64,000 nt of DNA. It comes from Nelumbo lutea (taxonomy: Eukaryota; Streptophyta; Magnoliopsida; Proteales; Nelumbonaceae). Position numbers and translations under genes: made by a program. The notes beneath the pieces were generated by a model. The model was given only the letters and a program-made list of their open reading frames with translations. It made no database searches and was not told the origin of the DNA. The stretch is taken from assembly GCA_022828595.1 (NCBI GenBank), contig JAKGHH010000005.1, positions 65,901,655 to 65,965,654 of the forward strand, in the 5' to 3' direction. This document shows, piece by piece, positions 2,900 through 23,214 of this stretch (positions are counted from its first letter, which is position 1; each line of letters begins with the position of its first letter).

Positions 2900-3540
2900 T
2901 CATTTAGACAATGGCACGACCTGGCAGCCTGGCACAGGCGCTGACCTGGCGACCTGCAAGACGTGCTCAGCGACAAATTCAGCATGCATATTCAAACACT
3001 CCAACGATCCTTGAAAGTTAGTCCACGTGCCAAACGATCAGGAGGGTGGTCAACATGCATGGCGGTTACCTTAGCAAATCTTGGACCACTTGACGACTTC
3101 TCAGAAATCTCAGATATGGTGCGTGAAGCCCACGCCAAATAATGCCTATATAAAGACACCAACCCCAATGACATGGGGGGAAAATAAGCATTTTCTAGCT
3201 CTCATGCTTTATGATTTTTAGCTCGCAGTCTACTATGAGAGTACTGACTTAAGCATCGGAGCGACCTTGCTAATTAGCCACCACAGGTCCTCTGACATTA
3301 GTTCCTCGCAGGTTTCTAAAGAACGACGAATCTCAACAATCAATCTAACTCGGCACTCTAGCCAATTCGTCACTTAACCTGCCTAGCTTAGCCCAATCAG
3401 CTCTTCATCTAACCTACCTAGCTCGACCCAGTCAATTCGGCACCTAACCTGCCCAGCTCGACCCAGTTAACTCGACACCAAATCTGCCCCCATCTCAGAC
3501 CAAATAACGAGGTACTTAGCACAAAAAATTGATTCATCAG
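2900..3540 (+). repeat. Probable solo LTR
   Basis: This block is richer in GC than its surroundings. It has a TATA-like CTATATAAAG at about 3146, then a stretch similar in style to the U3/R part of Tat-type gypsy LTRs, and ends in ATTGATTCATCA. About three imperfect 35-bp repeats lie at 3370-3478, sharing CTAGCTCGACCCAGT. No internal retrotransposon domains adjoin it and I found no convincing target duplication, so the limits are approximate. It could be a truncated LTR instead. Confidence 0.45.
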
Positions 3541-3859
3541 AATCAATCAAATTAAAAAGCCGTTACATACATATAAAATCCAAGTGAAATAACCATGTGG
3601 TAAGATCACCAAGCAGAAACAACACAAAATAACTCTTTGTGACTTTACTTGTTTTTTCTTTCTTTTTTAGCATCAAACAAATTAGTTACAAAGAAAAAAT
3701 GAAGATATTCGAAAGGGAATAAAACCCTATTATTCATTAGTTCAAAGAAACTCAAGAAGACTCCAAAATAGGGATGCCATCAAAGCCCTCAAGTTCTTTA
3801 AGATATAAAAGAACAAATTGAGGGCAAAGGAGCTAATAACTGTCAGTGTTCTGAAACAG
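3541..3859. other. Intergenic DNA without recognised feature
   Basis: AT-rich sequence between the probable LTR and the LINE at its right. Nothing coding was recognised. Confidence 0.4.
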
Positions 3860-4303
3860 GTAAGGCTCATTTTGTAGGGTGCACCCAACCTGAACCCATG
3901 TGCACTCAAATGGATTCTTTGCCATGTTTTGATTCACCCCTCTCAACCAGATTAGCTTTTGATAGCAATCTATAACCATCCTGACCGAAGACAGCAAAAC
4001 AATACGTGGTCGGAGCTCCAAGTAGTTATATGGACAAACCCTGATGGGAGACTTTAATGCAGTATTGGAATACAACGGAAAACAAGGGGCAGACCGTTAA
4101 ATAGTCGGAAAATGGAGGCTTTCAAAAATATCGTTCAAGCCTGTTGCATGATGGATCTGGGTTACAGTGGACAACACTTCACTTGGACCAATGGCAATGG
4201 GCAGCAGGGGTTGAGGAACGTCAAGGCGAGACTGAATTGAGAGCATTGGCTAATCCCGAGTGGCGCACTACTTTCCCAAATGCAGAAATCGTTCATCTCC
4301 CTA

Positions 4304-4480
4304 TAATTTACGAGACCGGATCTGCTCTCGCACGGGCTCACATGCACATCCACCGTGCATTAGAAACATCTCTCGTACTTATAGGTTATTATTCACGGGA
4401 GATGTTCCCAATGCATGATGGATGTATATGTGAGGCGCCCCTGTGTGTGGAGCAGCAGATCCCGTTCCTAACTTATTCGG
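4304..4480. mobile_element. Palindromic miniature element, GGGAGATGTTCCCAAT family
   Basis: This insert interrupts the LINE endonuclease reading between VHLP and SDHYP. It is a near-perfect hairpin. GGATCTGCT on the left pairs with AGCAGATCC on the right. CTCACATGCACATCCACCG pairs with the later GATGTATATGTGAGG. AACATCTCTCG pairs with CGGGAGATGTT. Related copies occur at 9408-9593 and twice near 22.0-22.3 kb. It encodes nothing. Confidence 0.65.
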
Positions 4481-4627
4481 ACCACTATCCAATCATCTTG
4501 GACACCTAGGGTAATCTTTCTCTGAGGTAGTTAAAGAGGCATGGAAAAACCCTATTGGCTTCGTCGGTTATTTCTATTTTTAATAACGCCACAAATGCTC
4601 TCCCCTCTCAAGAAAAGATTAATATTA

Positions 4628-5213
4628 GGAAAGGGTGTTCATGAAAAATCGAAATATCGAATCTTAAAATGTGATTTAATTGAATTGATCAGTTCGGTTT
4701 TTGTTTAGAATTTTTAAAAAATCGAAGGGCCGGTTCAGTTTTCGACTAACTAAAAAACTAGTGGTTAATTAAATCGACCGGTATATATATTTATATGTAT
4801 ATTTTATATACATTTTTAAAATATGTCACATATTTTCTATATATTATATATAAATATATATTTATTTTATATATATATATATATATATATAAATATATAC
4901 TTATATTATATTTATAATAATCCATTTATAAATATATTATATATTATATAATATATTTTTAAAATATTTGTAATATATTATATATCATTTATTATTTATA
5001 ATATAATATTATACATATATTTATATAATATATATTATAAATATAAAAAAAATAAAAAAATCAAAGAATCGAACCGGTCAAAAACCAAAATTGATGGATC
5101 AATTAACCGATGGTACCAGTTCGATTTTGATTTGAATAAATGAAAAAACCAGTACCACCGGTTTGATTTGCAAAATATGCCCATGATTCGATTAACCAAA
5201 TTGTGGACACCCC
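4628..5213. mobile_element. AT-rich element with TA target duplication (copy 1)
   Basis: The right end reads GTGGACACCCC followed by TA. The left end is degraded: TA, then GGAAAGGGTGTTCAT. Subterminal GGTTAA/TTAACC and CCGGT motifs point inward, and the centre (4780-5040) is almost pure A and T. The ends, the TA flanks and the subterminal motifs match the elements at 9911, 10962 and 62254. Confidence 0.65.
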
Positions 5214-6395
5214 TAATCTTAAGAAGATTGGAAGGCATCCAACACTACCCGGAGACTAGGCCTTCCCGGTTTTTATCCAAATTACAAGTTGACCTTTAGA
5301 ATGAGTATTATAGTATGAAAGAGATATTTTGGAATCAAAGAGCAAAGGCTAACTGGTTGGAATGGGAATCTAAATACAAAATTTTTCCACACATTAGCCA
5401 CCAAAAGAAACCATATCAACAAAATTATTTTAAAACCTTATACTCTTCCTCCATATTTATGGGTCTGGTAACCCTCTCTTACACCCCATTATAGAAAATT
5501 TATCCAGGGATTTGGAACTCGGGTTTCATCAAGTCTCGGCTCATGAAATAAAAGAAACCGTTCGGTCTCTTCCCAATAACGAGAGTCTGCGACCTGATGG
5601 TATCACTGCTGAATTTCTAAAGAAATATTGGCACATAGTGGAGTCGTCCTTTACTGGGGCTGTGAAGGAATGTTTGAAACGGGGAAATTCCAACTAATTT
5701 CAACCAAACAGCTTTAGTGTTGATCCCCAAAATTTCCAATCCCAAATCCATGAGTCAATTCCTCTCCATTGGTCTTTGCAATCGATTTATAAAGTGATTG
5801 CAAAATCATCTGGCGAGGTTGAAGCCATTACTCCCTCAAATCATTTCGCCTAATCTAATCAGCTTAGGAGTAATGTAATAATATATTCTACATGAAGTCA
5901 TTAATTCATTTATAAAGAAAAAAAAAAGTAGAGAAGATTATTTGGGCATCAAAGCTTATGACAAAATTGAATGCCTTTTATTCATGAAACCTTAAATGTG
6001 CTGGTATCCCTCCTATGTAGACTAAGCTGATTAGGAGTTGCATCACAACCACATCTGAATCACTGTTACATTCAATGCCACCAATCTCAACTCCTTTAAT
6101 CCCTCCAGAGGTTTCCGTCAGGTCTCTCCCCCTACATCTTCTTATTGGAAACCCTTTCCGATCTCCTCAATCAAGAGGTGCATAATGGCCGTATAACTCC
6201 CCTTAAAACATCTAGAAATGGGCCCACCCTACCCCATATCTTTTATGCTGATAGCCTGCTCATTTTTATGAAGGCTTCCAACACCCATCTAAACAACCTG
6301 TGAGCTGTGATCAATACTCGGAGAACGTTCTCATTTTGGATTTTGAAACGGAGAAATTTGTTTAATGGGATTTGATTTCTATTGATCAAGAATAC

Positions 6396-6927
6396 CATGT
6401 TTATTTTTCATATTAATATGGGGACTAGGAAAAGTTTATTTTCCTAGGTATTCATCTCCTAGGTGGGTAAATAACTTTCCCACCAATGAGTAAAGTTACT
6501 CACACTTGAATGGGACAAAAATACCCCTTTAATAATTGATTTTTATGACTAAAATGATCATTATCTTATTTACCTGAGAAATAAAAGAATTTACCTGGAT
6601 AAGTGTTTTCTAGGAAAAGCTTACCATGGTTTTTAAAACCAACTTGGAGACCGAATTGGTCAGGGGGTCCGGTTATTGGGTCAAACGGTCGTCCCCTTCT
6701 AACAAAAAAAATTAAAAATTAAAAAATGAAAATCGGTCAAAATCGTTCGAACGGTTAGCCACTTGGGTCAGCAGTTCGTTGACCAAAATCAATGATTTTT
6801 ATGGAAAATCTGGTTTTGGAAAAAACCGGAACCACTCAGGTGACCGATCCAATTTTGAAAACTATAAAACTTACCTAAATAATTACATTTACTTGAATAA
6901 ATAATTTATCGAAAAACAAACGAGGCC
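6396..6927. mobile_element. Miniature element resembling PIF/Harbinger ends
   Basis: It lies in the LINE reverse transcriptase region, with TAC on both sides (6393-6395 and 6928-6930). The right end, GAAAAACAAACGAGGCC, is the complement of the GGCCT-GTTTG-type ends of Tourist elements. The left end is weaker. The body has GGTAAGT/ACTTACC-like pieces also seen at 49642-50031. A hAT-like element sits inside it. Confidence 0.5.
6625..6866. mobile_element. hAT-like miniature element nested in a Harbinger-like element
   Basis: The ends CATGGTTTTTAAAACC and GGAATT-like TTTTGAAAACTATA are imperfect inverted repeats. The flanks AAGCTTAC (6617-6624) and AAACTTAC (6867-6874) are an 8-bp duplication with one mismatch. 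The inside has repeated GGTCAA / GACCG words and no reading frame of interest. Confidence 0.6.
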
Positions 6928-11414: not shown

Positions 11415-11419
11415 AGAAC
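11415..11419. repeat. Target site duplication of the gypsy element, left
   Basis: AGAAC lies directly before the left LTR, and the same five bases follow the right LTR at 21500-21504. Five bases is the usual duplication for Ty3/gypsy. Confidence 0.85.
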
Positions 11420-12243
11420 TGATGATGCGCAATCCGGTCGGTCTTAGCTGTCAACGACCTTGCCTCTGAATTGAGTAATTGGGGACCTGAAACAGGGGAG
11501 ATGAAGAAGCTCCGAGGAGAACCCAGTGTAGAGGCTCCGAAGCTCAAGTTAGAATCCTTCAAAGGCAAGATAAACCAGATAGCGCAAAGTTTGCATACAT
11601 TGTTCTTGGGGGGTAGAGAGCCTTTTATAACCACCTCGCACACTCACTTCCAGGCTTCTGTCAGATCGGGCCTGACTATCTCTGAGCTCCTGCTAGTTTG
11701 GATGTCATCCCTTCTGGCCGGGCAGAACCGCCACTGCTCCTTTTGTCGGAGCCGTTTCTGCGGCTGGGGACGACGGTGGCAAGTGGCGGTGGCAGGAGGC
11801 CGTTTGAAGTGCGGCTGTCAAGCGTCAGATCCCAAATCAGTCAGGTGCGCCGCCCTTGGAAACGGACATCCTTGGTGTCAGGTATGGTACGCTTGGTTAG
11901 TCTGGCGTTTCGGAGGCGAAGTGCCGGAGTAACGGGGGAACAAAGTCTTGAGTTCGGTTTGGGGAGTGCTCCGAGCTGCCATGGGCCAGCTCGGGTCACG
12001 GCCTTGTGAGGTTTAGGGCCCAGAAGAGAGTTCGAGCTCCCTGTAGGGAGCTCGGGTCCTTAGTAGCGAGCTCGGGCTCCTAGCAGGGAGCTCGGGTTCT
12101 TAGTAGGGAGCTCGGGCTCCTAGTAGGGAGCTCGTGCTCCTTTTTCTTTTGGTGCTTGTGTTTTGGGCGCTCTGTTGCCCCGAGCTGTTCGCTTTTGCCA
12201 CGCGTCGAGTGATTGCGAGTTCTGGCCAAATTTAACTTAATCA
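11420..12243 (-). repeat. 3' LTR of the gypsy element (left copy)
   Basis: It starts TGATGATGCGC and ends TTAACTTAATCA, so it has the TG...CA ends. It is 824 bp against 810 bp for the other LTR. The main difference is 13 bp near 11780 (AAGTGGCGGTGGC) missing from the right copy. It includes tandem 20-bp units at about 12027-12146. Confidence 0.9.
12027..12146. repeat. 20-bp tandem repeats inside the LTR
   Basis: About five units of the form GGAGCTCGGGYTCYTAGTAG follow one another. The same array is at about 21286-21402 in the right LTR, so it is part of the element. GAGCTC is itself a palindrome. Confidence 0.75.
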
Positions 12244-12262
12244 ATTGCCCCCCACTCCCTGC
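12244..12262 (-). promoter_or_regulatory. Polypurine tract of the gypsy element
   Basis: On the minus strand AGGGAGTGGGGGGCAAT directly precedes the 3' LTR. This is the expected place for the primer of plus-strand DNA synthesis. Confidence 0.75.
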
Positions 12263-12580
12263 GCCAAGGGTCTTGGCGCGGGGAGTTCCTAAGGCGGGAG
12301 GATTTTGGCCCGTAACTTGAATTTTATTCAATTGGTGGCGCGCACTTTGGTTTGATTTTCAAAAAGGCGCACGTTTGGGAGACGTGTCGATAGCCGTTTT
12401 CTCAAATTTCGGGAGTCGTGCCGCAGACACTTTTATTGCGAAGAGACGTGCGCTGACACCCTGTCAGTTTCGAAAAGGTGTGCGCTGGTCACGTCTCGGC
12501 TTCGGAGGATGTGCGGTCAGTGCGATTGTGGGCCGTTGGATTGGCTTTGATCTGGACCGTCGCTTTCCGGTTGCTGTGGA

Positions 12581-12587
12581 TATAAAT
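12581..12587 (+). promoter_or_regulatory. TATA box for the antisense gene
   Basis: TATAAAT stands about 160 bp before the ATG of the antisense gene, in a 500-bp GC-rich leader between the polypurine tract and that ATG. Inferred from position and sequence only. Confidence 0.45.
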
Positions 12588-12742
12588 CGAGGGGGGGTAC
12601 CCCAGTCGCTGCCACTGTACCTCTCGAGCTCGCGTCTAAGTTTCAGCTCGCGTCCCAGGTTCCTCTTGTTCGAGCTTTCGTGGTCTACTCCAGTCTTCTT
12701 CCCAGGTGAGTTCTTTTCCTGGAACCCGTCTTCTACCCCCTG

Positions 12743-14624
12743 ATGTCTAGCTCGGATGGCTCAGACAGTCCAAGCGGGTCTGATGCAGGTTCTACGAATC
12801 GTTTTGCATCCCCCGGTAGTTCTAGCGAGCCTGATGTAGATCTTGAGGAAGAGGTTTCGAGTAGTTTTGCGTCCACCTCTCGTCGGGGTCGGGTTCTGGA
12901 CCAGTTTGGACCTTCGGCCATGACGCCTGAGGGACTCCAATCCCTCATAACTTACTATAACTTGCCCGGGGAGTATGCCTACTTTATCCCTACGGGCAAC
13001 TTTCCTTGGGAACACGGTCCTGATGAGATTGTGATAATCCGGGAGCAGCTCGCTGCGGGGCTGCGGCTGCCTTTCCATCCTCTTCTTGTCGAGGTCCTGA
13101 ACCACTTCGGTGTGACGGTCGGCCAGCTTCACCCGAACTCCATTAGGAATTTAGTGGGGACGATCTCCCTATTCTGCGACGAGAACTTTCCTTTGGACTT
13201 GGAGATTTTTTCTTCTATTTTAATGCTAAAAAAGCAAGCGGGTACCCTTCCTGGGCGTAGGCAGGCATACTACCTGTCTCCTCGCCCAGGTTTCAAGCTC
13301 TTACACGAACTCCCTAATAAGGTCCCGGCGTGGAAGCGGGACTATTTCGGTGTGCGAAGTGCGCTGGGGTGGCCGTTTTAGAACGGCTGGGGGATGGCCG
13401 CTCCCGACTCTGGCATCACACTTGACAAAGAGACGGTGAAGGGCCTCCATCAATGGGCGCGGCTTGGGCTAACGTGTCAACAGTATCTGACGGAGGCCAA
13501 GCTTATTGCTGCTGGCCTGAGTTCGGGTAGGTTCTTCCCCTAGCGATCCTATCTTGCTTTTCTTTTGCTTGTTTTATTGATGCCGAACTCCTTTTCGCAG
13601 GTGCGATGGACTCTCGAGGGACCCGAGGTGGGCACTTGTTCCAGGGCATGAAGAGGAGAAAACGGGTGGCTAAGCGAACTCGCACCGAGCTACCCCAGGG
13701 TGCGGAGCCCGAGGTGCCGGACTATTCGGCGGAGGATCAGCCTATGGAGCCCGAGATGGTTCCTCCTATGCAGGAGCCGGCGGGGGCTCCTTACGCCGAA
13801 ACTACTCACACATGGGCTCCCGCCTACTCCGGGTCTGCCCAAACGCGAGCTGGGCCATCAGGCTCGGGGGCCCCGGGGGACTTTAGGAGTGTGTTGTCGC
13901 CTACTCACGCTCTTCAGAGGAGTAAGGAGGCCATTTTCCCCGAGGAAGTCGCGGCGTGGACTAATCTTCCTCTGCACCAAGTGGCCTGCCGTGCCGTTAC
14001 CCATGCCATGGTGGTAAGTGATCTCCCTTTTTTAGAGTTCTTCGGCTTTTATTCTTCTATTCGTTCCTCTGATCACTTGTTTCCTTTCGATAGGTGAACT
14101 CTTCTATTCACGCCTTGGCGAACCAGGTGGAGAGGAGCTCGAGGCAGGCGCAAGCTACCGAGGAGGCTGCTCGTGCTGCTGAGGAGGCTGCTCGCCTCGT
14201 GCGGTCTAGGCAGGCGAGGTCTCAGAAAGATGCTGAGGCTATGGGAGTGGTTGTGAAACATATGGCAGAATTGAAGCTGGACCTACAGCATCAGGTCGAG
14301 TATCTTCAGGAGGATATCAAGGAGAGGACTCAGATCTTCTCTCAAGGCATCGAAGATGCGAAGAAGAAAGTTGTTAGTGATTATATTGCTTCGTCGGACT
14401 TCGATGATCTGATGGTGGACTCCTACAGGAGGGGTTTCAAGCTAAGCCGGTGGATGATCCGGAATACGTACCCGAGCTCGACATCAGCGCCATATCCACT
14501 TCGCGTATTACTCAGGAGATGGCCAACGCTGTGGGATGGTGAACCGGACTCCGAGGGGGAGGCAGGGCCTTCGGGTATCGCCGAAGTGGCTTCTGATAAC
14601 GAAGAAGTAGCCCCGGACTTGTAA
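12743..14624 (+). CDS. Antisense gene of the Tat element (gypsy-type 'transposase' family protein), 3 exons, one amber stop
   Basis: The gene is antisense to gag-pol. I place exons at 12743-13526, 13601-14013 and 14094-14624. Both introns are short (74 and 80 bp) with GT-AG ends, and the exons join in frame to 576 codons. Exon 1 is acidic and serine-rich, then reads NLPGEYAYFIPTGNFPW and LRLPFHPLLVEVLNHFGV, the pattern of the plant family called putative gypsy-type transposase (PF04195, my recognition). Exon 2 is basic then proline-rich. Exon 3 has an Ala/Glu-rich probable coiled coil (about 14110-14350) and an acidic tail. A TAG at 13379 interrupts exon 1, in WPF*NGWG, and the frame goes on unbroken after it; C-to-T change of a CAG is likely. 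A PELDI-like motif lies out of frame near 14470, hinting at two small compensating shifts. Its function is unknown. Such ORFs are reported in Tat elements. Confidence 0.7.
13527..13600 (+). other. Intron 1 of the antisense gene
   Basis: It begins GTAGGTTC, has a T-rich stretch (CTTTTCTTTTGCTTG) and ends TTTTCGCAG. Splicing joins LSSG to AMDSRGTRGG in frame; unspliced, the frame stops at once at the TAG in CCCCTAGCG. Confidence 0.65.
14014..14093 (+). other. Intron 2 of the antisense gene
   Basis: It begins GTAAGTGATC, a near-ideal plant donor, and ends TTTCGATAG after a T-rich tract. It joins THAMV to VNSSIHALANQ. Confidence 0.65.
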
Positions 14625-14797
14625 AAAATGAAATGGCTCCTCATTTTTTTTTGTACACCTCATTATCTGAAATGAAATGGCCTTTTTGCTTAAGTGTTGG
14701 TTGTCCTGTCTTCGAGCTGTGTTTTTGCCGAACTGACTATTTCGGTCCTCTACTAGTTCGTTTTCTACCTCGGCTTCGGGGTACTTGCCTTGGCAGT

Positions 14798-15999
14798 CTA
14801 TAGGTAGTATCGCCTTAGGTTGACAATGTTCCATGCTCGGGGTACTCGTTTTCCCTCTAGGGTTTCGAGCTCGTATGCCCCCTCGATTGCTTTCTTTACT
14901 CTGTAGGGTTCTTCCCAATTTGGTCCAAGTTTCCCTACGGTGGGTTCGGGCACCATGACCTTACGGAGAACCAGGTCGCCGACGCGGAAGTTCCTCTTCT
15001 TTACTCTGGCCGTCTGGCGTTATAGTACCGAGCTACCTTTTGCTGGTAGGCCGCAGTTCGGATGTACGCGAGGTCTCTCACCTCGTCCAGTAGGTCGAGG
15101 TTGGTGCGTAACTCGCCTTCATTTGTTTGTTCGTCGTATGCTTCTAGTCGTAGTGTAGGTACTTCGATTTCTTCCGGGATCACCGCCTCGGTGCCGTAGG
15201 TGAGGTTAAAGGGGGTCTCTCCTGTGGCGGTTTTTTCCGTGATTCGGTGAGCCCATAGAACACTTGGTAGTTCGTCTGCCCATAACCCTTTGGCTCGGTC
15301 TAGTCGTGCTTTCAGTCCGCGGAGGATGGCTCTGTTCATTACTTCTATTTGGCCATTTTCCTGCGGGTGTGCGACCGACGTGAAGTTCTAACTAATTCCC
15401 ATACTTTTGCACCATTCTTGGAACTTGATATCCTCGAACTGTTTGCCGTTGTCGGAGATCAGTACCCGAGGTAGCCCGAACCGACATACTATGTTCTTCC
15501 AAAAGAAGTTCTGTATGTTTCGTGCTGTAACTATTGCCAGAGGTTCAGCTTCTATCCACTTTGTGAAGTAATCTACTGCCACCACTAGGAATTTTCTCCC
15601 GCCTGTCGCTGGTGGGAATGGCCCTAGAAGGTCGATGCCCCATTGGGCGAAGGGCCATGGACTGGTGAGGTATTTGAGGTCGGCAGCGGGCTGATGGTGG
15701 ATATTGGCATGCTTCTGACACTTGTCGCATTTTCTGACGAGCTCGATGGCCTCTATCTTCATCGTTGGCCAGTAGTATCCTTATCGTAGTGCTTTTTGGG
15801 CAAGGACTCTGCCCCCCAGGTGTCCGCCGCACAAGCCTTCATGAGTGTCGTAGAGTACCAGCTCGGCTTCGGCTGGGCGCAAGCACCGTAGGTAGGGGAG
15901 CGTGTAGGATTGTCGGTACAACCGTTCGTCTATCATGACGTATTTGGCTGCCTGGCGCTGCACCCTCTTGGCTGTGTTGCGATCTGGGGAGGGTTCCAT
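14798..15999 (-). pseudogene. Gypsy integrase, broken
   Basis: This is the last part of pol. The zinc-binding H2C2-type start is at about 15781-15999 (LYRQSYTLPYLRCL, then HEGLCGGHLGGR, then KCDKCQKHAN). The catalytic core is at 15388-15762 and on to 15339, with the first Asp in WGIDLLGPF, the second in LISDNGKQF and the Glu in HPQENGQIEV. The C-terminal part (RVGDLVLRK, then PNWEEPYRV, then NIVNLRRYY) ends at a TAG at 14798-14800. No chromodomain follows. A TAA after KALR, a TAG after KSMGIS and a frame change near 15000 break it. Its 3' end lies only 174 bp from the 3' end of the antisense gene, so the two transcripts would converge. Confidence 0.85.
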
Positions 16000-16114
16000 C
16001 TAGCAGAAAGCTCGCGAGTGGGTCGATCCAGCTCGGCTCTGCTTCAGTGATGGGAGCGACCTCTTCTGCCCCATCGAGAATGTTGGGCCGAGGTAAGTCC
16101 TCTATGTACACGGT

Positions 16115-16590
16115 TTACATGGAGTAGTGACTCCTGATGGATAACTGGGACAGGGCATCGACCTCAGTGTTCTCTGACCTTGGGATTTGCTTGATAAAGT
16201 GTGACTGGAAGTTGAGTGGAGCCTCATTTACTTTTGCCAAGTATGCGATCATAGAGAGCTCGCATTCTTCGTATTCGCCCGTAACCTGGTTAACCATGAG
16301 TTGGGAATCACTGCAGATAACTACATGCTTTGCTCCGACCTTGTGTGCTAGGTTCAGCCCAGCTATCAGTGCCTCGTACTCCGCCTCGTTGTTGGATACC
16401 GCGAACTCAAAGCGTAGTGTGTATTCCAACCTTGTCCCGCTCGGGCCGCGTAACACTATTCCAGCCCCACTGCCTTACTGGTTCGAGGAGCCATCTACGT
16501 GAAGGATCCAGGGCTCCTCATCCCAGTTCGCACTTGGTCTAACCAGGAGAGATACTACGCTGGCTGCTACTTTACGAGGTTCGGACTCGA
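16115..16590 (-). pseudogene. Second RNase H domain (archaeal-type) of the gypsy element
   Basis: The domain begins WILHVDGSSN near 16500 and continues as SNNEAEYEALIAGLNLA, then VICSDSQLMVNQV, and ends with VDALSQL. The acidic set D, E, D, D expected for RNase H can be seen. It follows a first RNase H domain (16766-17140) after a spacer. Two RNase H domains in a row are characteristic of the Tat lineage. One stop and a frame change lie just behind DGSSN. Confidence 0.8.
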
Positions 16591-16765
16591 TTGGCTTGGG
16601 AGCTCCGAGCCCGCCCGAACTGGGGACCTCGGGCTCGACCGGCTCAGGGGCTTTGGGGCTAAACGTGCATTCTGCGATAAAATCTGCCAAGGCTTGGGCC
16701 TTAATGGCAGTTCTCGGCTTGTACTGAAGATCGTACTCGCTGAGTTCGATGGCCCACTTCGTCAG

Positions 16766-18025
16766 TCAACCGGAAACCTCGGGTTTGAGTAAAACTTGTC
16801 TCAGAGGTTTGTCGGTCAGGACGATGACGGTGTGAGCCTGGAAGTACGGGCGGAGTTTCCGAGCTGCTATCACCAGTGCATATGCTAGCTTTTCTATCTG
16901 CGGGTACCTTGTCTCTGCTCCCTGCAAAATTTTACTAACATAATATATGGGTCGCTGGACCCGGTCTGTTTCCTTTATTAGTACCGAACTGACCACCTCG
17001 TCGCTTGCCGAGAGGTACAGTTCTAAGACCTCGCCCTCCTCGGGCCGAGCTAAGGTTGACACACTGGCGAGATAACCTTTTAGCTCGTCAAACGCGAGCT
17101 GGTAGTCTTGGGTCCACTCAAACCCTTTGCCTTTGATTGCTTTGAAGAAAGGTAGGCAGTGGTCAGCTGACTTGGACATGAAGCGGCTTAGAGCGTTTAC
17201 GCGGCCATTTAGCCTCTGAATTTCTTTTACTTTCCAAGGTGATCTCATATCTAGGATGGCTTTTATCTTGTCCGGGTTGGCCTCAATATCGCGCCGATTG
17301 ACAATGTAGCCTAGGAATTTGCCTGAGGTGACGCCAAAGACACATTTGTTGGGGTTCAATTTCATGCTAAACTGACGCAGGATTTGGAAGATAGAATCTA
17401 AGTCTTTTATTAATTCTTATGAAAATTGTGTCTTGACGACCATGTCGTCTACATAACACTCTATCCTCGTGCCAATCAGGGGCCGAAATAGCCTATTTAC
17501 AAGTCTTTGGAAGGTCACCCTGGCATTTTTTAATCCGAAGGGCATGACCTTGTAACAGTACAGCCCGAACTCAGTTATGAAGCTGGTTTTTTCCTCATCG
17601 GACTGATCCATCCGGATTTGGTTGTAGCCTGAGTAGGCATCGAGGAAGCTTAGCAACTCATGTCCCAAGGTCGCGTCCACTAGGCGGTCAATTCTGGGGA
17701 GGGGGAAGCAATCTTTCGGGCAAGCTCGGTTCAGGTCAGTGTAGTCGACGCACATGCACCACTTGCCGTTCACCTTTTTTACCAGCACGGGGTTGGCCAC
17801 CCAGCTTGGGTAATGGACCTCTCTTACGAAGTCTGCTGCGAGGAGCTTCTCGACCTCCTTGTCGACCGCCCTCCAGCGCTCTGGGGCTAAGTTGCGTTTC
17901 TTCTGTCTAACGGGTCTGACTATAGGGTCAGTGTTAAGTTTGTGAGTTATAAGGCTAGGGTCAATACCGGGTATATCGGCTGCGAACCATGCAAAAATAT
18001 CTAAATTTTGAAATAAAAAACTCAC
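16766..18025 (-). pseudogene. Gypsy reverse transcriptase and first RNase H
   Basis: Reverse transcriptase reads CVDYTDLNRACPKDCFPLP, then LSFLDAYSGYNQI, then MPFGLKNA and the catalytic YVDD with both aspartates kept. A TAA at 17417 cuts the frame directly behind the palm. The next open piece (16766-17365) carries the thumb (KCVFGVTSGKFLGYIV) and the RNase H-like domain (LYLSASDEVVSSVL, then RPIYYVSK, then YALVIAARKLRPYF). The enzyme copies element RNA into DNA. The catalytic residues are present but this copy cannot give one protein. Confidence 0.88.
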
Positions 18026-18289
18026 CAGTTCGGTCCGTAGGGGTTCTTCGATGGAAGCACCAATCTGGAGTGTGCGAGCTGGGTCCGTAGGCGAAGTCGG
18101 GATTGCGACTGTATCTTCTATGGGTGAAGCTCATTCCTTGCCTTGCTCCGCAGGCCGCTCCAGATCGAGGTCGCCGATTGCCTTGGTTTTTCCCTTCAGG
18201 GCGGCAACATAACACTTGCGGGACTCGAGCTGGTCGCCCCGCGCTACCCCCACACTGAAGTCCGTAGGGAACTTCATGGCCAAATAGTA

Positions 18290-18783
18290 GGTGGAGACCA
18301 CCGCCCGTAGGATATGTGTGATCGGCCGCCCTATTATGGCATTGTATGGGGAGGGGTCGCGACCACCAGGTAGTCATGGTTGAGTCTGACAGCACTAGGC
18401 CATGTGCCGACTTCCACAGGTACTATTATTTTCCCGAGGGGCCTGACTTCCTCTCCGCTGAAACCCACCAGGGGAGTGTTCGCGGGCTTAAGTTCGCTCC
18501 TTTGTAACTGCGGCTGGTCAAATGCTGATTTAAAGAGGATGTCCGTTGAGCTGCCCGAATCTATGAGTACGCGTCTGACCTCGAAGTCGCTGATTCTTAG
18601 TTTAATGACAAGCGCGTCATCCTCTGTGAAGAAGATTGGTTCTTTGGTCTTTGGTCTCTTTGGGGGGTTCCATTCTTCGAGGGCTACTTCGTGAACTGAA
18701 GTCTGGGCCGCTGTTGAGGTACACCCTGCTACCACCGAACCTCCCACAATGACATGAATGGTTCCCCGAACTGGCCTCTCCAC
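18290..18783 (-). pseudogene. Gypsy aspartic protease
   Basis: The open stretch contains VLIDSGSSTDILF, the DSG active site of retroviral-type aspartic proteases. It is followed by VGFSGEEVRPLGKI and VPVEVGT, the usual next conserved pieces in Tat-type elements. The frame is lost near 18334, where the reading moves to another frame before reverse transcriptase. Confidence 0.85.
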
Positions 18784-18825
18784 TGGAGGTTATCGCTGTA
18801 ATGGTTCGGCAGGCCTGCTGCTAGA

Positions 18826-20601
18826 TTAGGGGGCATCCTTTTCGTGCTCCCCTGGTCGATCTGCCTTATTGTTATTATTGTTGTGCTGGACAAAGTTTCT
18901 CAAGTATCCGCGACCGATGAGCCCCTCTATCTCGTCCTGGAGATTATTGCACTGCTCAGTACTGTGACCATGATCTTTGTGGAAACTACAATACAAATTC
19001 TTATTTCTTTCGTTTGGATTTCCCTTTAGGCAAGGTGGCCACTTCACGTAGGGGGCGTCCTTGATCGTCATTAAGATCTCGGTCCGCCTTGTGTTCAGTG
19101 GTGTGTAATCCGTCCAAACTACTAGGGGAGCTCGGAATGACTGGTTCGGCTTCGGCTCTCGGGCCGAGTTTTTCGATCGACTGGGTTAGAGGGCTCGCCC
19201 TCCCTCTTTCTTTTCTCATTTCCGCCTCGGTTCGTTGATTGATTTCTTCCTCTGTCCTCATGAACTTGTCCGCGAACTTGAGGAATTCGGCCACGGTTGC
19301 GGGCTGGTTAGCTACCATGTGCCATTTGAATTCTTTGTGCGTTACCCCTCTTTTTGCCGCCGCGAGCTGCACCGCGGGTCTAACCGCGGTATCTGCAAGC
19401 ATGCTTCGTTGAATCACTTGATGTAGCCCTGTATGGATTCTCCTTCCCTTTGGACTACTCTGAAGATACTTTCCTCTGCTCTGGGGCACCATTTGTTGGT
19501 GACAAAGTGTGCGGTGAAGACCTGCACGAATTGAGCCCAGCACTTTATCGACTCGAAGGCCAGGTTCCTGTACAGTGCGGGCTACCCCCCGGAGGGTGGT
19601 GGTGAAGGCCACGCACATGCATGATTCGCTAGCCCTGGCGAGGTACATTTGGGACTGGAAAGCGTCAACGTGGTTGTTGGGGTCGAAGGACCCGTCATAC
19701 TTGTCCAGAGGCGGGAGCTTGAAATCTCTGGGCAAGGGGACCGCTAGGAGTTCTGAGGTGAGGGGGGAGGGAACTGAGAGAATCGGGGTGACTCCTGCCT
19801 TGTCCGAGCTTGTCTCTTTGCCTCTGAGCTCTGACAGTACACAGGTGGCGGTTCGGCGGCTTCGCCGGCGCCTTCGCTGTTGAGTGGGCCTTGTACTCGC
19901 ATTGCTGGCCTCCGTGCTGCCGAGCTCGATGGGCCCAGAATGCTGGTAGTCCGCCGCTGCCAGTACGCTGAATCGGTTTCCCGTGAGTGGGAACTCGGGC
20001 TTGGAGCGCTGAGGTGCCGATCTCGCGGGCGAGGTGCCCAACCCGCCTGCGAGCTGCGAGGCGGGGATGACTTTTTTCTCTCTTTGGCCTGGGGACGAGG
20101 CCTGACTATTAGGGGAGTTCTAGGGCCTGGAGGCCTTGCCTTGGTGGGGGCGTCCATCCTGTAGGGAGGCCTTGACCGGCCTCGGAGCGGGGTGGCGAGG
20201 TGGAAGTAGCGGTTGGTTCAGTGGCAGTTGGGGGAACTGCTGTTGATAGTGATACTGGGAGATGTTGTGCAGTACTTGGTGCTGGTAAAGCTGGTGTTGC
20301 TGGAACTGTTGCATTTGGGCTTCCATTGCCCGCATGCACTGCATCAGGTCGTCCAACCGGTTTTGGCTGGCTGCCAGGGGGACGGCAGTTGGTTCAGTAA
20401 AGGTTGTCTCAATAGGGGGAGGAAAGGGGATGCTTGTGGTAGGAAGGTTTACGGGCGCCACTGCTTGTGGCGCACTTAAACTGGGGATTCCATCACCGAA
20501 AGGGGGATGGTGAACTGTCCAACGCACACCATGGGAACTTGAAGCTGTTCCCTGGTGGTGTTTGTCTCTGTGCCGCGTCCGGCGTTGCTGGAAGAGGCCA
20601 T
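18826..20601 (-). pseudogene. Gypsy gag, frameshifted
   Basis: The likely start is ATG at 20601, opening MASSSNAGRG, 89 bp inside the right LTR boundary. The reading changes frame near 20500, 20130 and 19550. A Gln/Pro-rich stretch (MEAQMQQFQQHQL) is followed by the gag core (LDKYDGSFDPNNHVDAFQSQ, then CMCVAFTTTLRGVA) and WHMVANQPATVAEFLKFADK. It ends with a CSFHKDHGHSTEQCNNLQDE motif at about 18950, a C-H-H-C pattern typical of this group. It would form the particle that packages element RNA. The several shifts make it non-functional. Confidence 0.8.
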
Positions 20602-20671
20602 GAGCGTTGGGTTTTTTGAAGAGGAAAAAAGGGGGTATGAGAGTTTGGAGGGAGGCTTGTTGAAGCGATTT

Positions 20672-20689
20672 CCCACAGACAACGCCAAT
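20672..20689 (-). promoter_or_regulatory. Primer binding site of the gypsy element
   Basis: On the minus strand TTGGCGTTGTCTGTGGGA lies next to the right LTR. TGGCG directly behind the LTR is typical of Tat and Athila-type elements. The tRNA was not determined. Confidence 0.7.
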
Positions 20690-21499
20690 TGATGATGCGC
20701 GATCCGACCAGTCTTAGCTGTCAACGACCTTGCTTCTGAATTGAGTAACTGGGGACCTGAAACGGGAGAGATGAAGAAGCTCCGGGGAGAACCCGGTGTA
20801 GAGGCTTTGAAGCTCAAGTTAGAATCTTTCAAAGGCAAGATAAACCAGATAGCACAAAGTTTGCATACCTTGTTCTTGGGGGTAGGGAGCCTTTTATAAC
20901 CACCTCGCACACTCACTTCCAGGCTTCTGTCAGATCGGGCCTGACTGTCTCTGAGCTCCTGCCAGTTTGGATGTCATCCCTTCTGGCCGGGCAGAACCGC
21001 CACTGCTCCTTTTGTCGGAGCCGTTTTTGCGGTTGGTGACGACGGTGGCAGGAGGCCGTTTGAAGTGCGGCTGTCAAGCGTCAGATCCCAAATTAGTCAG
21101 GTGCGTCGCCCTTGGAAACGGACATCCTTGGTGTCAGGTATGGTACGCTTGGTTAGTCTGGCGTTTCAGAGGCGAAGTGCCGGAGTAACGGGGGGACAAA
21201 GTCTTGAGTTCGGTTTGGGGAGTGCTCTGAGCTGCCATGGGCCAGCTCGGGTCACGGCCTTGTGAGGTTTAGGGCCCAGGAGAGAGTTCGGGCTCCTTGT
21301 AGGGAGCTCGGGTCCTTAGTAGCGAGCTCAGGCTCCTAGCAGGGAGCTCGGGTTCTTAGTAGGGAGCTTGGGCTCCTAGTAGGGAGCTCGTGCTCCTTTT
21401 TCTTTTGGTGCTTGTGTTTTGGGTGCTCTATTGCCCCGAGCTGCTCGCTTTTGCCACGCATCGAGTGATGGCGAGGTCGGGCCAAATTTCTCTTCATCA
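20690..21499 (-). repeat. 5' LTR of the gypsy element (right copy)
   Basis: It begins TGATGATGCGC and ends CTCTTCATCA on the plus strand and matches the left LTR throughout. About twelve of the first 130 positions differ, nearly all transitions, by my own comparison. AGAAC follows at 21500-21504. Confidence 0.9.
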
Positions 21500-21571
21500 A
21501 GAACCAATCGATTCGATTAACCGCATTTTACAATTTAATTTTCTCGATTCGGTTTTTCATGGACAACCCTA

Positions 21572-22162: not shown

Positions 22163-22305
22163 GCTCCGGATCTTCTGTGCACGTAAATCCTGCCCACGCC
22201 TACCCATAATACATTATCCCCGTGAATTGGGAACATCTCCCCCAGAGGATGAGATGTTCTCCCTGTGCTGCTGCGATAAACGTGGGCAGGAGATCCGGAC
22301 TGTGG
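22163..22305. mobile_element. Palindromic miniature element near RPC5 (copy B)
   Basis: CTCCGGATCTTCTGTGCACG and TCCTGCCCACG on the left pair with CGTGGGCAGGAGATCCGG on the right. GAATTGGGAACATCTCCCCC pairs with GATGAGATGTTCTCCC. It ends about 130 bp before the RPC5 ATG, so it probably forms part of the promoter. Confidence 0.6.
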
Positions 22306-22438
22306 CCGTTTTGCTTTGTTTAAGTTGGTACTTTCAATAGGGGGAGGAGAGTCGGAGAGAGCGCGGTGCAGTGCCCTCTCCTCTCTAACTAACCCCGACT
22401 GTATCAACACCGCTGTCGGAGGTCGTGTTTCAGTTATT
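22306..22438 (+). promoter_or_regulatory. Probable 5' leader and core promoter of RPC5
   Basis: The stretch carries a purine-rich tract (GGGGGAGGAGAGTCGGAGAG) and a CT-rich run (CCCTCTCCTCTC), common in plant 5' leaders. No TATA box is evident. There is no in-frame ATG ahead of 22439. The start context has A at -3 and G at +4. Confidence 0.45.
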
Positions 22439-23214
22439 ATGGACCTGGACTTAGACGACCTAGGCATCGAGCGCCCCGATGGCTCAAGCCAGGCTGCTTC
22501 CAGAAAACCCTCAAGGTTCCTGCCCAAATCATCAAAGCCGAAGCTCCGACCGAAACCAGAACCAGTATCAGAATCAGAACCTGCTGCCCTTCCTGTAAAG
22601 AAACAAGAAGATTCCCAGCCATCACTCGATGCCACTGTCAAGGCAGCCTTTGAACCCTCTCCACCGCCACCTGCTTCTTCGACTCTCAATTTTATGGCCA
22701 AAGAGGAGGTGGAGCCGAAGGCGGAGGCGGAGGTGGTCCCCATGGAAGAAGACGGTGACGAAGATCGAGTTGTTCGCGAAATTGATGTCTTCTTTAATCC
22801 TTCTCCTCTTGATACCGATACTCAAGTAGGCTTCACAAATGCATACAGTCTCGATTTCTATACATCCGATTGGATTAACGTGTGGTTATGCCTTCTTACA
22901 TTTTCCTTTTTTTCTATATTTTACTTCCAGTTGTATGTTCTTCAATACCCTCTTAGACCTTGTTGGCGTCCTTACGAACTGGATGAGAGATGTAAAGAGG
23001 TGTATATATAGATTTTTAATAAGCGATATTCACTTTGCCATTTGACATTGCTAGTTGTTTTTGGTTTGTTTATTGGGTGTCTCATTATTGGATATTGGTC
23101 ATTCAGGTTAGAATAAAACCAGAATCTTCAGAAATTGAAGTTGATTTGCGCACTTATGATGGTGATAACTGTAACAATGATGATGCCGCCAAGAATAGGA
23201 AAATGACAAAGCAG
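22439..23214 (+). CDS. RPC5: RPC5 exons 1-3 (residues 1-188)
   Basis: Three exons lie close together, with introns of 105 and 107 bp, all in phase 0. Exon 1 ends TDTQ before GTAGGC. Exon 2 is [10 protein letters not shown] to ERCKE. Exon 3 begins [14 protein letters not shown]. Joined, they give the RPC4-binding region of the family. Confidence 0.88.

What the first reader, a model, noticed from the sequence alone, without database searches (positions are those of the whole stretch)
12244..14800. Spliced antisense gene with its own TATA box inside a Tat retrotransposon, converging on pol
Seen: a plus-strand frame of 576 codons that needs two short introns with good GT-AG ends, a TATAAAT about 160 bp upstream, and a 3' end 174 bp from the pol stop on the other strand. 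gag-pol has many shifts, but this gene has one TAG and perhaps two small compensating indels. Known: extra antisense ORFs occur in plant Tat elements, with unknown function. Inference: a spliced, separately promoted antisense gene could make a regulator of the element or double-stranded RNA with pol.
Basis: partly seen in the sequence, partly recalled or inferred. Interest (0 to 1): 0.75.

Follow-up and report, generated by a model that had tools for sequence, protein, structure and literature searches.

The report
Spliced antisense gene inside plant retrotransposon
A plant retrotransposon carries, on its opposite strand, what looks like a real intron-containing gene of a known but little-understood family, and related proteins from lotus and banana relatives point to introns in the same places, so the gene has probably been kept working for a long time.

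Summary
A Retand-type LTR retrotransposon lies on the minus strand at 11420-21499, flanked by AGAAC repeats. Between pol and the 3' LTR, on the plus strand, sits the family's known antisense accessory gene, encoding Transposase_28/TRP28 (PF04195, E 6.5e-11), in three exons: 12743-13526, 13601-14013, 14094-14624. None of 500 shuffles gave so long a spliced frame. The element's only plus-strand TATAWAW lies 162 bp before the ATG. Homologous gene models support both introns: a Nelumbo protein crosses junction 1 without a gap and reads through intron 2 at the same residue; a Musa protein and a close unspliced relative differ at both sites, in matching phases. Antisense TRP28 genes, and a separate antisense promoter in maize Grande, are published; these introns are not mentioned in what I could read. 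Better preservation than gag-pol is not supported (1 stop in 576 codons against 6-7 in about 1,770). Lead: CGAGCT is over-represented across the element and concentrated in LTR repeats and the antisense leader, perhaps binding sites for the product. No RNA data or sister-copy DNA could be examined; the regulatory role is inferred.

The parts
11420..12243 (-). 3' LTR (824 bp)
   Evidence: 93.2% identical to the other LTR; ends read; K2P 0.053
20690..21499 (-). 5' LTR (810 bp)
11415..11419 (.). target-site duplication AGAAC; its partner is at 21500-21504
12028..12141 (.). 20-bp tandem repeat array in the 3' LTR, unit GAGCTCGGGCTCCTAGTAGG, rich in AGCTCG; matching array in the 5' LTR at 21284-21398
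12581..12587 (+). TATAAAT, candidate antisense promoter TATA box
   Evidence: only plus-strand TATAWAW in the element; each LTR has one on the minus strand (20898 and 11629)
12627..12654 (+). two AGCTCGCGTC sites (12627-12636, 12645-12654) in the presumed antisense leader; AGCTCG[CG]GTC is otherwise found only in the LTRs of this window
12743..13526 (+). exon 1, ATG start; in-frame TAG at 13379-13381
   Evidence: Nelumbo P0002 and P0003 start with similar MSG/MSS residues
13031..13231 (+). Transposase_28 (TRP28, PF04195) match
   Evidence: E 6.5e-11, 42.7 bits against cut-off 26.2
13527..13600 (+). intron 1, 74 nt, phase 1
   Evidence: position supported by P0001 and the P0004/P0006 pair
13601..14013 (+). 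exon 2
13648..13683 (+). basic stretch MKRRKRVAKRTR, NLS-like (motif type recalled, no predictor run); similar in P0001
14014..14093 (+). intron 2, 80 nt, phase 0
   Evidence: position supported by P0001 and P0006
14094..14624 (+). exon 3, helical/coiled-coil-like C-terminus, ends in a stop codon
   Evidence: helices in the low-confidence C-terminal part of the model of homolog P0004
15391..15780 (-). integrase core (rve)
   Evidence: E 4.9e-14
16118..16474 (-). second RNase H (RVT_3), taken as the additional RNase H of Tat elements
   Evidence: E 1.6e-17
16766..17416 (-). RNase H of reverse transcriptase
   Evidence: E 2.2e-20
17420..18130 (-). reverse transcriptase (RVT_1)
   Evidence: E 3.6e-20

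Best explanation
This is the antisense accessory gene (aORF-3R, TRP28 type) of a Retand-lineage Ty3/gypsy retrotransposon. Shown by sequence: three exons, two introns, PF04195 in exon 1, and introns matched in place and phase by gene models from other plants. Inferred: RNA polymerase II starts at the TATA-type antisense promoter between the 3' LTR and the gene, and the host spliceosome removes both introns. The introns survive transposition because the RNA that is reverse transcribed is the opposite strand, on which they are not recognised. The product is a nuclear protein (basic stretch after intron 1) with a TRP28 domain and a helical C-terminus that probably mediates self-association. It acts on the element's own DNA, most likely as a trans-acting regulator of LTR transcription or silencing; AGCTCG sites in the LTR repeat arrays and the antisense leader are the candidate targets. 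This particular copy is broken by a stop codon and is probably inactive.
For: PF04195 in exon 1. Element anatomy: LTRs, target-site duplication, RT, RH, second RH and integrase on the other strand. Splice chain unmatched in 500 shuffles. Nelumbo P0001 crosses junction 1 without a gap (tblastn pieces 13223-13528 and from 13591 on) and carries 18 extra residues starting VS, as GTAAGT reads, exactly at intron 2. P0006 differs from its 92% identical Musa relative P0004 by 25 extra residues at intron-1 level and by a switch to VSV... at intron 2; the phases inferred are 1 and 0, as in the window, and MAFFT, not told of introns, put junction 2 in the same column. Only plus-strand TATAWAW of the element. 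Published: the maize Grande gene of this position is transcribed antisense from its own promoter and its product is nuclear (PMC7264820); 97% of recently active Retand clusters carry an antisense TRP28 ORF, predicted to bind DNA (PMC11963269).
Against: No RNA evidence was available. No DNA of a sister copy could be read (genome search did not answer in 14 tries), so intron conservation rests on protein models, some possibly ab initio, and dN/dS is untested. The Nelumbo model keeps the 18 residues at intron 2 rather than removing them, and 54 nt would be short for a plant intron. The Musa-type intron 1 lines up only to within two or three residues. That the Nelumbo, Musa and Ensete proteins lie antisense in retrotransposons is assumed. 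An older survey found Transposase_28 in only 23% of Retand elements (PMC6317226). DNA binding, nuclear entry and any regulatory effect are inferred. A model of a homolog found no structural relative. This copy has a stop codon and perhaps frameshifts.
Confidence: 0.62

Rival explanations
1. The RNA, not the protein, is the point: the antisense transcript pairs with the element's genomic RNA and feeds small-RNA silencing or dampens translation; the frame is maintained only incidentally.
For: The exons are complementary to the 3' part of the genomic RNA (orientation). PMC7264820 proposes this possibility for antisense aORFs.
Against: Protein-level conservation across plants: 51-74% identity to Nelumbo models over the aligned parts, 30% between window exon 1 and the Musa protein, with introns at the places that hold the frame together. 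This is not expected of a purely RNA function.
Confidence: 0.15
2. A host gene fragment captured by the retrotransposon, with its introns, in the antisense direction.
For: Two ordinary-looking plant introns and a TATA-type promoter are what a captured genomic fragment would bring.
Against: The domain is PF04195, published as a feature of Retand elements with no similarities found outside transposable elements (PMC11963269). The introns appear shared with distant plants, so any capture was ancient.
Confidence: 0.07
3. In this copy the gene is only a decayed remnant, with splicing no longer relevant. This speaks about the copy, not the family, and can be true together with the main reading.
For: In-frame TAG, possible frameshifts, LTR divergence 0.053 (about 2-4 million years at rates I recall), stops at a rate not different from gag-pol.
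Against: All four splice sites and most of the frame are intact.
Confidence: 0.6
4. Chance ORFs with chance GT-AG sites.
For: None found.
Against: 0 of 500 shuffles, Pfam match, homologous proteins.
Confidence: 0.01

Closest known systems
Retand-lineage aORF-3R with TRP28/Transposase_28 domain (PMC11963269; PMC7264820)
   Same: Antisense gene between pol and 3' LTR, PF04195 domain, element with integrase, RT and RNase H on the other strand
   Different: Here the gene is in three exons; the survey used an ORF finder and the word intron does not occur in its main text. The pol-to-3'LTR region is 2554 bp, shorter than the reported 2,933-6,566.
Maize Grande gene23 (as described in PMC7264820; the 2013 paper itself was not held)
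   Same: Antisense accessory gene with its own promoter; nuclear product reported
   Different: No sequence comparison made; whether gene23 is spliced was not stated in anything I read
VANC anti-silencing proteins of VANDAL DNA transposons (PMC5735166, passages read)
   Same: Works-like comparison only: element-encoded accessory protein, and short motifs concentrated in tandem repeats of the same element
   Different: No homology tested; here the motif is also frequent in coding sequence, where VANC21 sites are lacking; no binding or demethylation data
Ogre elements (PMC6317226, passages read)
   Same: Tat clade, second RNase H between RH and integrase, an intron in the element
   Different: The Ogre intron is in the sense strand between two gag-pol ORFs; Ogre extra ORFs more often carry the plant mobile domain, not seen here

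Membership tests
Retand lineage (Tat clade) | Additional RNase H between RH and integrase (shared by Ogre and Retand per PMC6317226) | tested here: met
   RVT_1, RT_RNaseH, RVT_3, rve in this order on the minus strand
Retand lineage (Tat clade) | RT falls in the Retand clade of a phylogeny | not tested
Retand lineage (Tat clade) | Antisense ORF with TRP28 between pol and 3' LTR (97% of clusters, PMC11963269; 23% of elements, PMC6317226) | tested here: met
   location
Retand lineage (Tat clade) | Long pol-to-3'LTR region, reported range 2,933-6,566 bp | tested here: not met
   12244-14797 is 2554 bp, under the reported range, which describes clusters of young copies and is not used to define the lineage; LTRs (824 and 810 bp) and internal region (8446 bp) are within the reported ranges
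TRP28 (PF04195) protein family | Score above the Pfam gathering cut-off | tested here: met
   42.7 bits against 26.2
Spliced nuclear gene | GT-AG introns that hold the frame together, matched in homologs | tested here: met
   homologs at protein level only
Spliced nuclear gene | Spliced transcript detected | not testable with these tools
   No RNA data available
Ogre | Extra ORF with plant mobile domain (57% of Ogre elements, PMC6317226) | tested here: not met
   No plant mobile domain listed for the three antisense pieces scanned at E up to 1; the short piece after the TAG was not scanned
VANC-like anti-silencing system | Protein binds a motif repeated in the element and removes silencing | not testable with these tools
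   Only the repeated motif was found

The most novel reading that the evidence does not exclude
Retand elements carry one spliced antisense gene, possibly older than the monocot-eudicot split, whose product reads a short CGAGCT-type code spread through the element (LTR arrays, antisense leader, both coding regions) and works as a sequence-specific activator or anti-silencing factor, a retrotransposon counterpart of VANC. The separate antisense ORFs (TRP28 and SMC-like) reported from intron-blind surveys would then be, in part, exons of this single gene.
Probability: 0.2. Interest if true: 0.78.

Novelty: new member of a known kind. Interest (0 to 1): 0.5.

Why it matters
Antisense genes are a hallmark of Retand elements, but their function is unknown, and the 2025 survey looked for uninterrupted ORFs. 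If the gene is normally spliced, such surveys split or undercount it, and full-length proteins should be taken from spliced models before asking what they do. Introns kept in the same places over long times would also be strong evidence that the antisense transcript is made, spliced and translated. A recurrent DNA motif in the same element gives a direct, testable target for the protein.

Tried and rejected

Rejected: chance origin; 'better preserved than gag-pol' (6 or 7 stops in about 1,770 codons against 1 in 576, P 1.0 or 0.69). That CGAGCT enrichment is only codon choice was weakened by synonymous-codon shuffles (0 of 300 reached the observed count, in gag-pol and in the antisense gene), but codon-pair effects are not excluded, gag-pol segments were chosen by eye, and two segments overlapped by 37 bases and one ran 24 bases into the LTR; one search removed both faults and gave the same leading hexamer.

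Literature: ten searches were answered; one search was an input error. I saw no statement that TRP28 antisense genes are spliced, but the 2011 survey of extra ORFs, the Grande 2013 paper and the Retand 2006 paper did not turn up as held texts and were not seen, so this is no proof of absence in print. Read: PMC7264820 parts 1-2 of 3 and passages; PMC11963269 parts 1-3 of 5 and passages; passages only of PMC6317226, PMC9289625, PMC11728184, PMC7730604, PMC5735166; other papers as listings with the start of the abstract.
Full report
What is there. The window holds an LTR retrotransposon on the minus strand, 11420-21499. Its LTRs are 824 and 810 bp, 93.2% identical, K2P 0.053, or roughly 2-4 million years at substitution rates I recall. 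It is flanked by AGAAC on both sides. Pfam finds reverse transcriptase, RNase H, a second RNase H and integrase in that order on the minus strand. A second RNase H between RH and integrase is given as the place found in Ogre and Retand elements (PMC6317226, passages). Six in-frame stops, or seven with one in the presumed gag region, interrupt about 1,770 gag-pol codons.

The antisense gene. On the plus strand, between the pol stop (14798-14800) and the 3' LTR, lie three exons, 12743-13526, 13601-14013 and 14094-14624. They encode 575 residues with one in-frame TAG at 13379-13381. Intron 1 is 74 nt, phase 1; intron 2 is 80 nt, phase 0. Unspliced, intron 1 brings a stop after five codons and intron 2 a stop just past its far end. 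A search for the longest stop-free chain with up to two plausible introns returned exactly these introns, 1086 nt; 500 dinucleotide shuffles averaged 392 and never passed 771. The intron filter was set after the introns had been seen. Exon 1 matches Transposase_28 (TRP28, PF04195) at E 6.5e-11.

Promoter. TATAAAT at 12581 is the only TATAWAW on the plus strand of the element; the minus strand has one in each LTR (20898 and 11629), and no other. In 2000 shuffles of the 498 bp upstream of the ATG, TATAWAW appeared in 0.5%. The element thus has one TATA-like site for each LTR promoter and one for the antisense gene. This is consistent with, but does not prove, a promoter.

Are the introns real? 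Three protein searches gave six homologs: three Nelumbo nucifera models, one each from Musa and Ensete, and one from an unnamed ENA contig. P0001 (Nelumbo) aligns across junction 1 without a gap, although its match in the window is in two pieces, and has 18 extra residues beginning VS, as GTAAGT reads, exactly at intron 2. That model keeps these residues; as an intron they would be only 54 nt, short for a plant. P0006 and the Musa protein P0004, 92% identical, differ by 25 extra residues near intron-1 level and by a sudden switch to VSV... at intron 2. Read back to codons these fit introns of phase 1 and 0, as in the window. MAFFT put window junction 2 and the P0006 break in the same column; at junction 1 the two differ by two or three residues. 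The other three are less telling. P0002 runs on past junction 1 into a similar stretch in the alignment but has no tblastn match to exon 2 and does not reach exon 3. P0003 departs from the pattern after junction 1, apparently out of frame. P0005 has no unspliced relative to compare. So the evidence comes from three of six proteins: P0001, and the P0004/P0006 pair. Gene models may be ab initio; DNA of these loci was not available. [quoted passage not shown]

What it does. The published picture for this gene family is an antisense gene with its own promoter and a nuclear product in maize Grande (PMC7264820), and antisense TRP28 ORFs in 97% of recently active Retand clusters, predicted to bind DNA (PMC11963269); an earlier survey counting ORFs of at least 250 codons found Transposase_28 in 23% of Retand elements (PMC6317226), a figure that splitting by introns could depress. 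The window gene adds a basic NLS-like stretch shortly after intron 1 (similar in P0001) and a helical C-terminus (from the homolog's model, at low confidence). I take it to be an element-encoded nuclear regulator, at about even odds for that role. That introns survive in a retrotransposon follows from orientation: the RNA that is copied is the other strand.

A dispersed motif. AGCTCG[CG]GTC occurs six times in 64 kb, both strands searched: twice in each LTR and twice in the antisense leader. Its core CGAGCT is the top hexamer of gag-pol (22 observed, 3.2 expected) and fourth in the antisense gene under a first-order model; in the 3' LTR it is second to GAGCTC, and in both flanks it ranks below 200th. 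Under synonymous-codon shuffling it is first in gag-pol (19 against 5.5) and first, level with another hexamer, in the antisense gene (7 against 1.6); 0 of 300 shuffles reached either count. It lies in all frames and both orientations, and in 20-bp tandem arrays in the LTRs. CGARST sites run at 14-17 per kb in the LTRs and 10 per kb in the body, against 0.6-1.3 per kb in the more AT-rich flanks; only 1000 bp outside the element had GC of 0.48 or more, with no site, so the flank comparison is weak. VANC proteins of VANDAL transposons bind short motifs that form tandem repeats in their own elements (PMC5735166, passages). The parallel is a working hypothesis; no binding was tested.

The gene is a member of a known family. 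Its coding region does not overlap pol (173 bp apart), so pairing with pol RNA needs read-through, although its exons are complementary to genomic RNA. It is not measurably better preserved than gag-pol (P 1.0 or 0.69).

Verdict. A real gene that needs splicing, probably with its own antisense promoter, in a copy that is itself decayed. The anatomy is well supported, splicing at RNA level is untested, the regulatory role is inferred. Most interesting are the introns apparently shared with distant plants, and the motif.

Noticed in passing
11420-21499: CGAGCT/AGCTCG, and more broadly CGARST, is strongly over-represented across the element in coding and non-coding parts, in all frames and both orientations.
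   Followed up: partly
22280-23008: A plus-strand ORF matching RPC5, a subunit of RNA polymerase III (PF04801, E 6.7e-8), starts less than 1 kb from the 5' LTR.
   Followed up: no
12703-12711: A consensus-like donor, CAG|GTGAGT, lies in the antisense leader 37 bp before the ATG; its one acceptor in range gives a 28% T, 55% GC interval unlike the two introns.
   Followed up: partly
published Retand surveys: Intron-blind ORF surveys may have split single TRP28 genes into several antisense ORFs (for example TRP28 plus SMC-like); an inference from the PMC11963269 methods and the exon layout here.
   Followed up: no
   Followed up: partly
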